DNA from: Candidatus Vecturithrix granuli
Lineage (GTDB): Bacteria > Moduliflexota > Moduliflexia > Moduliflexales > Moduliflexaceae
DNA: 51,797 nt
Reading direction: 5' to 3'
Assembly (NCBI GenBank): GCA_000739535.1
Contig: DF820466.1
Coordinates: 403,779 to 455,575 of the forward strand
Made by a program: the position numbers and the translations under genes. The notes under the pieces are model-generated. The model had not been told where the DNA came from and ran no database searches. It was given only the letters and a program-made list of their open reading frames with translations. Below are positions 1 to 40,910 of this stretch, one piece after another. Position 1 is the stretch's first letter. Each line of letters begins with the position of its first letter.

Positions 1-51
1 AAAGAGCTAACACAGTTAAAAACAATGTATAATATCTGACTTTTTTATATG

Positions 52-92
52 AGTGCGTAATGTGAGAATTTAATATTAGTGCGTAACGTGAG
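52..92. repeat. short direct repeat pair, AGTGCGTAAYGTGAG
   Basis: Two 15-base copies, AGTGCGTAATGTGAG at 52-66 and AGTGCGTAACGTGAG at 78-92, are spaced 26 bases apart and differ at one position. They sit directly before the avd-like gene fragment. They could be the edge of a mobile or tandem repeat, but no further copies are seen in the window. Confidence 0.6.
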
Positions 93-263
93 TTACCCAT
101 TTATAAAGCGGCCTTTGACCTGAATTTGTATTTCGAGCAGATCGTGCGAAACTTCAGCCGCTACCATAAATACACATTGGGCACGGAACTGCGGGAGCGG
201 AGCCGGAACTACACGGATTGGGTTTACAACGGATTGCGGGGCAATTACAGGAATGGTATATAA
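87..263 (+). pseudogene. avd-like (diversity-generating retroelement accessory protein) N-terminal fragment
   Basis: The plus-strand frame from 87 reads LPIYKAAFDLNLYFEQ and then IVRNFSRYHKYTLGTELRE. This is very like the first helices of the four-helix-bundle accessory variability determinant (Avd) of diversity-generating retroelements. Avd proteins are about 110-130 residues and help the reverse transcriptase in mutagenic homing. Here a stop codon (84-86) lies immediately upstream with no in-frame start. Avd-like sequence ends near position 207, and the frame runs into unrelated repeat sequence (NYTDWVYNGLRGNYRNG) before TAA at 261-263. No reverse transcriptase, template repeat or target gene is in the window. 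I read it as a broken remnant. The family call comes from pattern recall, not alignment. A 94-codon minus-strand frame over the same bases looks like a shadow. Confidence 0.55.
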
Positions 264-35753: not shown

Positions 35754-38700
35754 TTACCCTGCCTTTAAAGCTTCTTTGCGAGCGTGATATTCTTCAATGG
35801 TCAAGTCGTACACCGCCGAATTCTGGCGGTTTTTATTTTCCGTGTAATGCACCGAATGGATAAAAGGCTCCACCACATTGATTTTATCCAGCGGCGTCAC
35901 CACCATGAGCTGCAAATTCAATTGTTTGAACAACTCCATCGCAAACATAGCGTTTTCCGGGTCAACCTTACTGAAGGCTTCATCTACCACCACAAAGCGG
36001 AAAGATTTCGACTGATACCCGTTCTGATTAATGCCAAATTGATATGCAATGGCTGAAGCCAGAATCGTATAAGCTAATTTGGCTTTTTCGCCTCCTGATA
36101 AGCCTTGCGAGTCATCGTAATAGCGTTTCGGGCTGTTATCTAAGCGATGTTTTTCCAGTGCGCCGAATTCCAACCAGTTACGGACATCTGTCACTTTTCT
36201 GCGCCAGGCTTCATCATTGGTCATGCGTTCGATAATCGCTTTCACTTTTTTGAAACTGATTTCCAGTTCCTCGGTTTCGTGCAGACGGGTGATGTTCGAA
36301 AACACATCCCGTAGGGATTGTCGGAACATCGAAATCCCTGCTTCTCCGTGATCGCGCACGTCTTTGTGATCAATTTGAATATAGGTCGGCGGCGTGGCGT
36401 GAAATTCGATCTGCTGCAAGGAGGCGTTTAGTTCCTTGATGCTGGCTTTAATGGCTTTAAATTGTTTATCAAGCGAGGCTTCAAAACCGGCAAAGTTCAC
36501 AATGACCCGTTCATTCAACCAGGTTTTAAAGCGTTGTTCGTGCCGGGGCAAATCTTCCTCTTTAATTCTGGTGTATAACGCCCGGTATTCGTCCAGAAAT
36601 TCGGGCGAATCTTGCAGATCAAGGCTATCCGCGGTCCAGCTTGGATATTTCTGCGTCACCTCTTCCGGCGGAATTTTAAAGGCGTGCATCTTACGCACCA
36701 GCGCAAGTTCAATTTTGGATTGCTCCTGACGCTGATCTTTGAGCACGCGATACACGCTGTCGCGTAGATTGGCCGCCACAGTGTCGAGATTCTGTAAAGT
36801 TAAAGAGGTGTTGATGGCTTGTAAGTGCGGCTCAAGGCGCGGAAAATATTCGTCGAGTTTAATATGTGCGTAAGCCTGGAGCACAGCCTGACTTTCAGTG
36901 TGCTGCTTCTGGTATTCCTGTAAATCCCGTTTGAGATTGGCGCGATGGTCTGCCAGGCGTTCCTCCTCTTTGCGTTTTATGAGAATGGCATCCTTCACCT
37001 GCTGTAACTGGCGTTCCAATTCCTGCAACAAATCCGACCCGTCCTTCAAACGCTGTTGTTCATCGGAAAGCTGTTGAATGTGCAGTACGTGTTTTTGCCA
37101 GTCAATTTCGTGATAATCGCTGAAGGTCAGGAATTTATTCAGCAAATCCCGCGCGGCGCTCAATTCTTCCCGGGTGTGCTCCAGGTCTTTAATCCGGGCG
37201 GTTGTGTTCTGGATTCGATTTTCCAGAGTGCGGCGCTGGGTTTGAATCAGATCAATTTTCGCGCTGTTATCCCAGCCTAAAATATAGTTGTTCTGACGCA
37301 CCACGTGCAGCCGGTCATCTTTTTCGTGGCGTTCATTGTTCTTGATCAACCCTTCCCGCGTCAGGGCTTTTTCATAGCGTTGAAAGTCTTCCAGGCGTTC
37401 GGTGCAGATAAAATTGTAAGATTTTTGCAGTTGCGTTTTGATCCAGTCGTGATAGACCGAATTGGGATCGATTTCCAATTTTGTCAACAGACTGTCAGGA
37501 TGGCCTTCTTCCCGGAACTGTTCGACCTGGTAGGGATCAACGCGAAAATAGACGATGCGCCCCATCAAGTCGGTTGAATTCACATATTGGTTCACCTGGC
37601 GGTAATATTTTTCCGGAACTAAGAGGATCAGTGCAAAATTGTGCAGCAAGCGTTCAATTGCGCTTTCCCAGGTTTTCTCTGTGTGTTTGACCTGAATCAA
37701 CTCGCCGATAAACGGGATTTCCTCTTCCGAGGCCCTCAAATGATCTAAAATTCCTTTGCGAATCGAAATATTTTTCAGCGGAATCTGGTTTTTCCGTCCT
37801 TCAAGCGAACGGATTTCTTCCAGCAGGGTGTTATTTTCCTGTTTATAGGATTGCAGCAGACTGCGTTGATCCGACCATTGTTCGTGCAATTCGGGCAGTT
37901 GTCGTTCGATCTGCTGTTTATGCGTTTTGGCGCTGCGCAGAATCTCGTAAAATCCCTGCTCATCAGGGGCTGCCGGATAACGCAGCATTTCTGCCAGCGT
38001 ATCGTATTCCCGCGCTTTCTGTTGTTTGGCGTTCCGTTCTTTGCTCAGGCTGCTGATTTCGCGGTCAATATTGCGAATCTGTTCACCGGTTTCATCTTTA
38101 CTGATAGCGATTTCAATCTCGGTGCGCTGCGCTTCTGACCGTGAAATTTCCTGGCGGAGGTCTTCAAGCTTGTGTTCGATGCGCGTGAGTGCCTGTTCTT
38201 TGCGCTCGCTGGCTTGTTCCAGCAAGGTCAGACGTTCTTTGGCAAAATAGGCGGGCAGGATGTCCAGAGTCTCTTCCACGTTATGAATTTCGGCCTCAAT
38301 CGCCTGGTATTCCTTCCCCTGTTCCAAAATCGGTTCCAGGAACAGGAGTTGTTCTTTCGCTTTTTCAATCGTGGTGTGGACAGAGAGCAAATTATCGTAA
38401 TGCTCGCGCAATTTTTTAAACTCTTCTTCAATATCCGTCTCTTCCAGCATATTCGTGCGGATAAATTCATTCAAGTTGCCCAGGACTTTAATCCCGACGG
38501 TGTGGGCAAACAGACTCAAGGCTTTTTCCGATTTAAAGCCGAAGACTTTTGAGAATTTCTGACTGTATTGCGTAAAACTGTCAAACAGTTCTGTCCTGTC
38601 AATCTGGCGCAGACGGCGTTTCCAGTCGCCGGCCGGATCGAGCGGAATAAAATGCTCTTGAATCGTCAATTGGTGCGGCGAAAAGAGATAGACCCGTTTT

Positions 38701-39128
38701 AATTCGTGATTACTGAACCAGCGCACCTGAGCTAAGGCAACCTCCTGGCGCAGGCCGGCGTCGCGGAAAACGGCTAATAGAATGGAATAGTCGTTTTTAC
38801 TGCGCAGATATTGCGTGACTGCCGTCGAACTATTCTCGTATTGAATATTGCCATAAGCTCCTAAACAATAGGATTTTTCATCCCGTTCGCGGCGATTGTC
38901 GGCTCCGGAAGATTGATTGTAAAAGCGTTTAGACGTGGGGACGAGCAGCGTCAATAGGGCGTCAACAATCGTGGTTTTGCCGGAACCGTTGGCCCCGGTG
39001 AGCAATGAATGTTTGCCCTCGGGCGCTAAGCGCCAGATTTTTTTGTCAAAAGTGCCCCAATTGTACATTTCAACAAATTGCAGGCGAAATCCCGCAACTT
39101 CATTATTGACATCAAACAATGTCGGCAT
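35754..39128 (-). CDS. jetC: Wadjet-type SMC/MukB-like ATPase (JetC family)
   Basis: This 1124-residue protein has head-coiled coil-hinge-coiled coil-head organisation. Walker A is GANGSGKT (45-52), with the family-typical AGFRLQFVEMYNWGTFD ahead; long heptad helices flank a hinge near residues 430-640; the C-terminal head has the signature GLSGGEKAKLAYTILAS and Walker B FRFVVVDEAFSKVD. This is the JetC (MksB/MukB-like) subunit that, with JetA, JetB and the toprim nuclease JetD, extrudes and cleaves small circular DNA. Here only a JetB-like gene is nearby, 843 bases upstream beyond an inserted opposing gene, and no jetD follows. There is no clear ribosome site before the ATG. Confidence 0.88.
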   Translation of the reverse strand: MPTLFDVNNEVAGFRLQFVEMYNWGTFDKKIWRLAPEGKHSLLTGANGSGKTTIVDALLTLLVPTSKRFYNQSSGADNRRERDEKSYCLGAYGNIQYENSSTAVTQYLRSKNDYSILLAVFRDAGLRQEVALAQVRWFSNHELKRVYLFSPHQLTIQEHFIPLDPAGDWKRRLRQIDRTELFDSFTQYSQKFSKVFGFKSEKALSLFAHTVGIKVLGNLNEFIRTNMLEETDIEEEFKKLREHYDNLLSVHTTIEKAKEQLLFLEPILEQGKEYQAIEAEIHNVEETLDILPAYFAKERLTLLEQASERKEQALTRIEHKLEDLRQEISRSEAQRTEIEIAISKDETGEQIRNIDREISSLSKERNAKQQKAREYDTLAEMLRYPAAPDEQGFYEILRSAKTHKQQIERQLPELHEQWSDQRSLLQSYKQENNTLLEEIRSLEGRKNQIPLKNISIRKGILDHLRASEEEIPFIGELIQVKHTEKTWESAIERLLHNFALILLVPEKYYRQVNQYVNSTDLMGRIVYFRVDPYQVEQFREEGHPDSLLTKLEIDPNSVYHDWIKTQLQKSYNFICTERLEDFQRYEKALTREGLIKNNERHEKDDRLHVVRQNNYILGWDNSAKIDLIQTQRRTLENRIQNTTARIKDLEHTREELSAARDLLNKFLTFSDYHEIDWQKHVLHIQQLSDEQQRLKDGSDLLQELERQLQQVKDAILIKRKEEERLADHRANLKRDLQEYQKQHTESQAVLQAYAHIKLDEYFPRLEPHLQAINTSLTLQNLDTVAANLRDSVYRVLKDQRQEQSKIELALVRKMHAFKIPPEEVTQKYPSWTADSLDLQDSPEFLDEYRALYTRIKEEDLPRHEQRFKTWLNERVIVNFAGFEASLDKQFKAIKASIKELNASLQQIEFHATPPTYIQIDHKDVRDHGEAGISMFRQSLRDVFSNITRLHETEELEISFKKVKAIIERMTNDEAWRRKVTDVRNWLEFGALEKHRLDNSPKRYYDDSQGLSGGEKAKLAYTILASAIAYQFGINQNGYQSKSFRFVVVDEAFSKVDPENAMFAMELFKQLNLQLMVVTPLDKINVVEPFIHSVHYTENKNRQNSAVYDLTIEEYHARKEALKAG

Positions 39129-39369
39129 AGGTTTTCAGGTCATCTGTCAAGTTATAAGTTACCCGGTTCGTAGTCCTCATTTTTGCTTATTCTTCATTCT
39201 TGGAGTTCTTTCACAGGCATTGGCTAAAAAGAAGCAAGATCTTTGTCAATAAAAACTGTGAAAAAATTATTGACGTACAGGCTCTTCTCTTGCATGCTCT
39301 CTCTCGCTCCATAAATACTGGAGTTGTGGGTTTTGAAAAGTCAACACATCACAACAAGGAGGGATTCGT
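39129..39369. other. intergenic region with a dispersed-repeat fragment
   Basis: Contains GGTTCGTAGTCCT (39164-39176), also found at 43669-43681, and TTATTCTTCATTCTT (39187-39201), also present at 40888-40902. A weak promoter for the SRPBCC gene (TTGACG at 39270-39275) is possible. No gene is seen. Confidence 0.4.
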
Positions 39370-39795
39370 ATGCCAAAAGTGTATGAAAGTGCTGTTATTA
39401 CTGCGCCAAGACCACAAGTGTGGGAAAAAATTCGAGATTTTAATGCGCTGCCGGCGTGGCACCCGGCCATTGCCAGCAGTGAACTGGAAAATGGCGACTG
39501 TGTGGGCTGTGTTCGTCATTTTTTTCTGCAAGACGGCGCCGAACTGCGTGAATGCTTGTTAACCCTTTCTGATCTGGACTGCACCTGTGTGTATAGCATT
39601 CTGGAATCGCCCATGGCCTTAAAAAACTATGTCGCAACGTTGCGGCTTTATGAAATCACGGCGACAAATCAGACCTTTGCCGAATGGTTCGCCTATTTTG
39701 ACGTGACAGATTTGAGCGCTGAAGAGGATACTGTGAATACGGTGCACGGCGTCTTTAAATCTGGCTTAGAAAGCCTGGTGAAATTTTTTGCCTGA
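39370..39795 (+). CDS. SRPBCC (START-like) family protein
   Basis: This 141-residue protein has the helix-grip fold pattern of polyketide cyclase/Bet v1-like proteins: AVITAPRPQVWEKIRDFNAL followed by PAWHPAIASSELENG, then LLTLSDLDCTCVYSI and a C-terminal helix FKSGLESLVKFF. It would bind a hydrophobic ligand, unknown here. A strong AAGGAGGGATTCGT precedes the ATG. It lies on the plus strand inside the gap between the jetB- and jetC-like genes, apparently inserted, flanked by short repeats on both sides. Confidence 0.8.
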   Translation: MPKVYESAVITAPRPQVWEKIRDFNALPAWHPAIASSELENGDCVGCVRHFFLQDGAELRECLLTLSDLDCTCVYSILESPMALKNYVATLRLYEITATNQTFAEWFAYFDVTDLSAEEDTVNTVHGVFKSGLESLVKFFA

Positions 39796-39802
39796 AAAAC
39801 GC

Positions 39803-39835
39803 AGACTTCCGAAGTCTGGCAGATTTCGGAAGTCT
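39803..39835 (+). terminator. hairpin after the SRPBCC gene
   Basis: AGACTTCCGAA (39803-39813) and TTCGGAAGTCT (39825-39835) form an 11-base perfect stem just after the stop codon; the T-run is absent. It resembles the ACTTCCGA hairpin at 24529. Confidence 0.5.
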
Positions 39836-39885
39836 CAACTACAATTATACTCCTGCTCTGGGACAGAAGTTCTTCCTTTTCAGAC

Positions 39886-39925
39886 CTTGTCGGACAAGTC
39901 AGAATTGTCCGACAGGTCCGACAAG
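39886..39925. repeat. nested palindrome CTTGTCGGAC family
   Basis: CTTGTCGGAC (39886-39895) pairs with GTCCGACAAG (39916-39925), and the left part CTTGTCGGACAAG is itself a palindrome. It lies between the SRPBCC gene and the end of jetB. Confidence 0.65.
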
Positions 39926-39971
39926 CTCTGTTAGCAAGAACTTCTCTCCCAAAGCACTACACACTTTGACT

Positions 39972-40577
39972 TCACTCAGCGTCCGGCGATTGTCGAGCGG
40001 GGTCAAGACCAGCATAGGCGGCTAGTTTCTGCCTGATCTCCTCCAGTTTTTCATGGGTAATTTTCGCTTTAATAATCCGCCGCACTTCATACCGCCTGTC
40101 GTCGCTATTGCCATTTTCTTGTTCTGTTTCTTTTAAAAAACCCAGGCGAACTACAGATTGGATGGTTTTATCAAATCGTTCCAGCAGCCTGACTTTATTC
40201 GGCGACTCTTTAAAGAAAATTTCGATTTTTTCCTGAAGCTCTTTGGTGCTGACAAAACATTTGCGCGATTCAATATCTTTGACATCAAACTCTTCTAAAA
40301 TTTCCCGCAAGAGCACACACAGCAGCGTCACCTCATAGGATAATGGCGTTCGCCGCACCAAACGCGGCAGTTTGTTCTCTTCCGCCTCAGGCTGTTTCAA
40401 AAACGCAAATCCCTCGCGTTCATCCAGGTGTAATTCTAGCCCGATTTTGGCAAAATAGTCGCGCACCGGGATTTGATAAGTCAATAAATCGCTCCAGGTG
40501 GTTTTCTCCTCATCGTAGAGCACATCCTGGAGCAATTTGATAATCACGTGCGCATATTCAACCGCTTTATTTTCCAT
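39972..40577 (-). CDS. jetB: Wadjet JetB-like (DUF4194, MukE-like) protein
   Basis: This 201-residue protein has the DUF4194 pattern: VIIKLLQDVLYDEEKTTWSD, YFAKIGLELHLDEREGFAFL, then LVRRTPLSYEVTLLCVLLRE and later DKTIQSVVRLGFLKET. It is the kleisin-associated winged-helix subunit (MukE-like) of the Wadjet condensin. The start is taken as ATG 40577 (MENKAVEYAH) with AGAGGAAACAG upstream; a longer frame reaches 40703 and cannot be excluded. In complete systems jetA (DUF3375) precedes and jetC follows directly; here jetA is absent and jetC is separated by an opposing gene, so the operon is interrupted. Confidence 0.83.
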   Translation of the reverse strand: MENKAVEYAHVIIKLLQDVLYDEEKTTWSDLLTYQIPVRDYFAKIGLELHLDEREGFAFLKQPEAEENKLPRLVRRTPLSYEVTLLCVLLREILEEFDVKDIESRKCFVSTKELQEKIEIFFKESPNKVRLLERFDKTIQSVVRLGFLKETEQENGNSDDRRYEVRRIIKAKITHEKLEEIRQKLAAYAGLDPARQSPDAE

Positions 40578-40754: not shown

Positions 40755-40910
40755 AATACGAATAGCATTGGGTTGTTTCGGGCATGAGGTATAAATTCTC
40801 AAAATCTCATAACTACCTATCAATAACTTTCTTTCACATGATTGATGAGAATAGCGGTTATTCATTAAAAATCAGGACATTCTTGTTTATTCTTCATTCT
40901 TATAGTTACT

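What the first reader, a model, noticed from the sequence alone, without database searches (positions are those of the whole stretch)
35754..40577. Split Wadjet pair: jetB and jetC separated by an opposing gene, with no jetA or jetD
Seen: a JetC-like SMC ATPase with intact Walker A and signature motifs and a DUF4194 JetB-like gene, both on the minus strand, separated by 843 bases holding a plus-strand SRPBCC gene flanked by short repeats and palindromes. Known: Wadjet (JetABCD) needs the kleisin JetA and nuclease JetD to cleave plasmids. Inference: either an inactivated Wadjet with intact coding frames, or a reduced MukBE-like condensin that has lost its nuclease and serves another task. Two large uninterrupted frames argue that the proteins are still made.
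Basis: partly seen in the sequence, partly recalled or inferred. Interest (0 to 1): 0.68.

Follow-up and report, generated by a model that had tools for sequence, protein, structure and literature searches.

The report
Nuclease-free Wadjet as probable chromosome condensin
In this uncultured bacterium (candidate phylum KSB3 kin) an anti-plasmid defence machine has lost its DNA-cutting part, its remaining three genes lie at separate places, and the usual chromosome-folding complex is missing, so the disarmed defence motor has probably taken over chromosome folding.

Summary
In detail: intact jetC (35754-39128, -) and jetB (39972-40577, -) lie 843 bp apart around a plus-strand SRPBCC gene, with no jetA or jetD in the window. 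The reading needs correcting. The kleisin jetA is not lost: one intact copy lies on another contig of the same assembly (G000:C12:47048-48466), and JetA and JetC trees agree that it is the original partner. jetD is found nowhere in the assembly. In the only same-family relative held (G001, a KSB3 MAG) jetA-jetB-jetC is a compact operon, also without jetD. The three proteins are under strong purifying selection. Both genomes lack all three markers of the normal bacterial condensin (ScpA, ScpB, SMC hinge); two genomes of the sister family have all three and lack JetA and JetC. Best explanation: a type I Wadjet lost its nuclease, replaced Smc-ScpAB as the chromosomal loop extruder, and its operon later broke up in the window's lineage. 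A P. aeruginosa MksBEF origin by JetD loss, and MukBEF replacing Smc-ScpAB, are already proposed; a third, recent case showing both steps appears new. Function is inferred, not shown. Outside KSB3 the JetD-loss/Smc-loss association is only suggestive (p = 0.06).

The parts
35754..39128 (-). jetC: SMC-like ATPase of type I Wadjet (1124 aa), only copy in the assembly
   Evidence: PADLOC PDLC00512 JetC1 1197 bits; JetC in PDB E 5e-51; single copy; motifs intact
39972..40577 (-). jetB: KITE subunit, DUF4194 (201 aa), only copy in the assembly
   Evidence: PF13835 E 3e-40; JetB1 210 bits; single copy; AlphaFold model pLDDT 88, best fold matches JetB 8dk1/8as8 and then MukE
39370..39795 (+). SRPBCC (polyketide cyclase 2-like) gene between jetB and jetC; not part of the relative's operon, so read as an interloper
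   Evidence: PF10604 E 1e-16; in G001 jetB and jetC are adjacent
39803..39956 (.). nested inverted repeats between the convergent ends of the SRPBCC gene and jetB; dispersed palindromes of this genome
39802..39818 (-). terminator-like hairpin after jetB, suggesting that jetB and jetC are separate transcription units
   Evidence: consensus scan only

Best explanation
The window holds two of three genes of a nuclease-free JetABC complex (SMC ATPase JetC, KITE JetB, and the kleisin JetA on another contig). It derives from a type I Wadjet plasmid-defence system that lost the nuclease JetD. I propose that it now works as the cell's chromosomal condensin: JetC dimers joined by JetA and JetB extrude loops of chromosomal DNA with ATP and compact and separate the chromosome, in place of Smc-ScpAB. 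Without JetD, stalling on a small circle no longer leads to cutting. Once the genes were housekeeping, the operon was free to break up, which happened in the window's lineage. Shown here: presence and intactness of A, B and C; no JetD match; no ScpA, ScpB or SMC-hinge match; JetD-bearing nearest relatives; purifying selection. Inferred: that the three proteins assemble, extrude DNA and act on the chromosome.
For: Intact single copies of JetA, JetB and JetC. No JetD_C match in G000 or G001, while the same search finds JetD in 15 other genomes and the C. glutamicum control. G001 has the jetABC operon with no jetD beside it (L019 is the same contig, named KSB3). ScpA, ScpB and SMC_hinge all absent in G000 and G001 and all present in the sister-family genomes G002 and G003, which in turn lack JetA and JetC. 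JetC and JetA trees both make G000+G001 one clade (100) with JetD-bearing Saprospiraceae L020-L023 nearest by path. Between G000 and G001: JetB 78%, JetC 72%, JetA 66% identity, i.e. 95th, 84th and 70th percentile of 147 reciprocal best hits (median 54%); pN 0.13-0.21 against saturated pS 0.73-0.81. Precedents: P. aeruginosa MksBEF probably came from JetABCD by JetD loss and acts on the chromosome; MukBEF replaced Smc-ScpAB in enterobacteria (review PMC10586767).
Against: No experiment. Both assemblies are about 93% complete; G000 has 10.75% estimated contamination. Only four genomes of the order were available. MukBEF was not searched for genome-wide. Outside KSB3 the association of JetD loss with ScpA loss is weak (7 of 29 against 1 of 24 with the KSB3 pair included, Fisher p 0.059; independent tree pairs 2-4 in favour, 0 against, p 0.125-0.5), and about 17 Chitinophagaceae, 3 myxobacteria and 2 Anaerovibrio lack JetD beside jetABC but keep ScpA. 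JetD could lie in the missing few percent or be replaced by an unrelated nuclease.
Confidence: 0.6

Rival explanations
1. JetABC is still a plasmid-control system: it traps and compacts small circles (as proposed for Smc5/6 on viral circles) or works with an unrelated nuclease encoded elsewhere, and the chromosome is handled without a condensin.
For: All three proteins stay in type I Wadjet families. Nuclease-free silencing by SMC complexes is an accepted idea (PMC10586767).
Against: No gene other than A, B and C is kept at the loci of both genera. It leaves the joint absence of ScpA, ScpB and SMC unexplained.
Confidence: 0.17
2. JetABC is an accessory second condensin, like P. aeruginosa MksBEF, and Smc-ScpAB or MukBEF is present but was missed or lies in unassembled DNA.
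For: About 93% completeness for both genomes. In Chitinophagaceae nuclease-free jetABC coexists with ScpA. MukBEF was not searched for.
Against: Three markers are missing in each of two independent assemblies. In the sister family ScpA, ScpB and SMC hinge lie mostly on different contigs, so one gap would not remove all. The same searches find them in G002, G003 and G031.
Confidence: 0.13
3. A decaying Wadjet remnant: JetD was lost and the split genes are on the way out.
For: The operon is broken, jetA is on another contig, and palindromic repeats sit in the gap.
Against: All frames and ATPase motifs are intact. The same nuclease-free state is shared by two genera that differ at about 34% of JetA residues, with pN 0.13-0.21 against saturated pS. 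The trees give ordinary branch lengths.
Confidence: 0.05
4. Misassembly or contamination makes an ordinary jetABCD look split.
For: 10.75% estimated contamination.
Against: Only one jetA, jetB and jetC exist. C12 and C18 have like composition (G+C 0.466 and 0.480). G001 C7 carries the orthologue of jetA's C12 neighbour (ftcD) beside orthologues of two genes at 24.6-26.1 kb of this window. G001 lacks jetD as well.
Confidence: 0.05

Closest known systems
Type I Wadjet (JetABCD / MksFEBG / EptABCD)
   Same: JetA, JetB and JetC are sequence members of type I families; the order A-B-C is kept in the relative G001
   Different: no JetD nuclease in either genome; genes dispersed in the window's genome; Smc-ScpAB not found
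MksBEF of Pseudomonas aeruginosa
   Same: SMC + kleisin + KITE without nuclease, probably by loss of JetD; works on the chromosome (PMC10586767, PMC7485682)
   Different: there it works beside Smc-ScpAB; here Smc-ScpAB is missing, and the proteins sit among JetD-bearing type I Wadjets, so this looks like a separate and more recent loss
MukBEF
   Same: sole condensin that replaced Smc-ScpAB in its lineage; related folds (JetB model matches MukE, JetA model matches MukF)
   Different: JetC is 1124 aa and a JetC1, not MukB; the genes form no muk operon
Smc-ScpAB
   Same: the role proposed here
   Different: ScpA, ScpB and the SMC hinge were not found in the genome

Membership tests
Wadjet type I defence system (JetABCD) | JetA kleisin (DUF3375) | tested here: met
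   G000:C12:47048-48466, E 7e-105; JetA1 469 bits
Wadjet type I defence system (JetABCD) | JetB KITE (DUF4194) | tested here: met
Wadjet type I defence system (JetABCD) | JetC SMC ATPase with intact ATPase motifs | tested here: met
Wadjet type I defence system (JetABCD) | JetD nuclease | tested here: not met
   no JetD_C in G000 or G001; no JetD beside the loci
Wadjet type I defence system (JetABCD) | genes in one operon | tested here: not met
   split over C18 and C12; A-B-C operon kept in G001
Wadjet type I defence system (JetABCD) | cleaves or restricts small circular plasmids | not testable with these tools
   needs an experiment
MksBEF-type nuclease-free condensin | SMC + kleisin + KITE without MksG/JetD | tested here: met
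MksBEF-type nuclease-free condensin | sequence kinship with Mks proteins | tested here: inconclusive
   JetB passes the MksE cut-off (48.7 against 27 bits) but scores far higher on DUF4194; no P. aeruginosa MksB was placed in the tree
MksBEF-type nuclease-free condensin | acts in chromosome organization | not testable with these tools
   needs Hi-C or a knock-out in a cultured carrier
MukBEF | MukB with full-length similarity | tested here: not met
   only residues 17-99 match the MukB N-terminal model, 26.8 bits
Smc-ScpAB | SMC hinge, ScpA and ScpB present in the genome | tested here: not met
   none in G000 or G001; all in G002 and G003

The most novel reading that the evidence does not exclude
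A plasmid-defence SMC complex (type I Wadjet) lost its nuclease and became the sole chromosome condensin of a KSB3 family, replacing Smc-ScpAB. This would be a capture independent of MukBEF and P. aeruginosa MksBEF, with the steps still visible in living lineages: JetABCD+Smc, JetABC+Smc, JetABC alone.
Probability: 0.55. Interest if true: 0.75.

Novelty: new variant of a known kind. Interest (0 to 1): 0.6.

Why it matters
How MukBEF displaced Smc-ScpAB is an open question; one proposal is that chromosomal MukBEF and MksBEF descend from defence systems. A lineage where a recognisable type I Wadjet without its nuclease is the only condensin found would be a recent natural repeat of that step. 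[quoted passage not shown] Automatic defence finders should not count such loci as immunity.

Tried and rejected
IFDR motif at the JetB N-terminus (the JetD contact described for Wadjet): not conserved even in JetD-bearing relatives here, so uninformative. PF11796 was searched as a JetD N-terminal domain but is DUF3323, an unrelated family, so that search says nothing. A JetD relic at window 46-258 (-): tblastn E 6e-5 in 1.27 Mb with one of the JetD queries and three stops, but a JetD profile gives 3.9 bits; not accepted. Campylobacterota as a further case: rejected, because a JetD-bearing Sulfurovum also lacks ScpA, ScpB and SMC hinge. JetC relatives in viral contigs: none by two pattern searches. 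The first genome-contig scan with a single protein found nothing. JetB has no sequence match in the PDB; the fold search settled it. P. aeruginosa MksB was not added to the tree; MukBEF was not searched for genome-wide.

Full report
Observation. The window holds jetC (35754-39128, minus) and jetB (39972-40577, minus), separated by 843 bp with a plus-strand SRPBCC gene (39370-39795). Profiles place both in type I Wadjet: JetC1 1197 bits and JetB1 210 bits, DUF4194 E 3e-40 and SRPBCC E 1e-16. Walker A, signature and Walker B motifs are intact. Inverted repeats fill 39803-39956; similar palindromes occur at several other places in the 1.27 Mb of this genome that I sampled, and none in 0.9 Mb of G001.

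The missing genes. A genome-wide search finds exactly one DUF3375 kleisin, intact, on contig C12, between an ftcD-like gene and a dipeptidase-like gene (names from my reading of the translations). JetA1 469 bits; the best PDB matches are JetA by sequence (E 7e-17) and by fold (E 5e-14, though the model is only moderately confident, pLDDT 72). The JetB model (pLDDT 88) matches JetB of P. aeruginosa and E. coli, then MukE. jetB and jetC are single copy. No JetD_C is found, although the search recovers JetD in 15 other genomes and in the C. glutamicum control.

The relative. The only other same-family genome held, G001, carries jetA-jetB-jetC in one compact operon with no jetD beside it and no JetD_C match anywhere. 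Its contig appears in the named collection as KSB3 bacterium DOLJORAL78_50_49 (L019). So JetD is absent in both genera, probably since their common ancestor, and the dispersal happened in the window's lineage.

One genome, one complex. JetA and JetC trees agree: the window genome and G001 are sisters at 100, and Saprospiraceae L020-L023 are the nearest rows by path (L022 is in the JetC tree only). All four of those carry jetD, partial at a contig end in L023. C12 and C18 have like composition, and G001 C7 joins the orthologue of jetA's neighbour (ftcD) to orthologues of two genes at 24.6-26.1 kb of this window. These points speak against contamination as the source of jetA.

Selection. Among 147 reciprocal best hits between samples of the two genomes (median identity 54%; a few are antisense frames, which lowers the baseline) JetB is at 78%, JetC at 72% and JetA at 66%. 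pN is 0.13-0.21 while pS is saturated at 0.73-0.81. These are not decaying genes.

The condensin gap. ScpA, ScpB and SMC_hinge have no match in G000 or G001, while G002 and G003 of the sister family have all three and no JetA or JetC. In the sister family the three genes lie mostly on different contigs, so one assembly gap would not remove them together.

Wider survey. 78 loci with JetC relatives were collected. Most carry jetABCD; jetD is absent nearby in Chitinophagaceae, Selenomonadaceae, three myxobacteria and a few others, with genome-wide JetD_C absent in most. Most of these keep ScpA. ScpA-less, JetD-less cases outside KSB3 are a Spirochaetales MAG (G040), a Treponema MAG (G041), a Bacteroidales MAG (G054), a Campylobacteraceae MAG (G043, discounted) and a Selenomonadaceae MAG (G064, which has an SMC hinge). 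For G040, G041 and G043 the jet locus runs off the contig, completeness is not known for any of them, and the SMC_hinge model misses even ScpA-positive spirochaetes. The association is 7/29 against 1/24, Fisher p 0.059 (the KSB3 pair is counted in it), and not significant on the tree. I therefore rest the argument on the within-order contrast and treat the wider pattern as a lead.

Mechanism. From known SMC biology: JetABC is a loop-extruding SMC dimer of dimers, and JetD cuts when extrusion on a small circle completes. Without JetD the motor could run on a chromosome harmlessly. Liu and colleagues (PMC10586767) propose that P. aeruginosa MksBEF arose by loss of JetD and that MukBEF replaced Smc-ScpAB; [quoted passage not shown] The KSB3 family fits a third event in which a recognisable type I JetABC is the only condensin found. 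My searches of the held library found no report of this (no hit in the KSB3 genome paper PMC4312070 for 'SMC', 'segregation' or 'chromosome'); subscription papers and preprints were not searchable.

Verdict. Observation confirmed; interpretation partly right. New variant of a known kind, moderately high interest, function unproven.

Noticed in passing
window 39803-39956; also L232, L218, L213, L133, L227, L240, L237: Families of short dispersed palindromes of this genome, absent from the sampled G001 DNA; they may mark rearrangement points such as the break-up of the jet operon.
   Followed up: partly
window 40819-40910: The stretch upstream of jetB next to the 40911 gene carries another dispersed repeat with many copies elsewhere in the genome.
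   Followed up: no
window 46-258 (-): Weak JetD-like tblastn match with three stops beside a 946-base run of N just left of the window; not supported by the JetD profile.
   Followed up: partly
L057 L059 L065 L067 L069 L071 L072 L074 L076-L083: A JetABC operon without adjacent jetD is widespread in Chitinophagaceae alongside ScpA, in varying chromosomal contexts; in L060, L062 and L070 jetD sits one or two genes downstream.
   Followed up: partly
L086, L088: Selenomonadaceae JetABC without jetD lies among housekeeping-like genes (folate genes in L086, ribF-like and pnp-like genes in L088, by my reading of the translations).
   Followed up: no
L061: Niabella hibiscisoli has a jetC broken into many frames next to an intact jetA.
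   Followed up: no
L015 8001-8435: Treponema saccharophilum plasmid pTS1 carries only the C-terminal fragment of a JetC about 62% identical to the window's.
   Followed up: partly
L041, L036 (G078, G043): Sulfurovum and a Campylobacteraceae MAG show none of ScpA, ScpB or SMC hinge, with JetD present in Sulfurovum; what folds their chromosomes is unclear.
   Followed up: no
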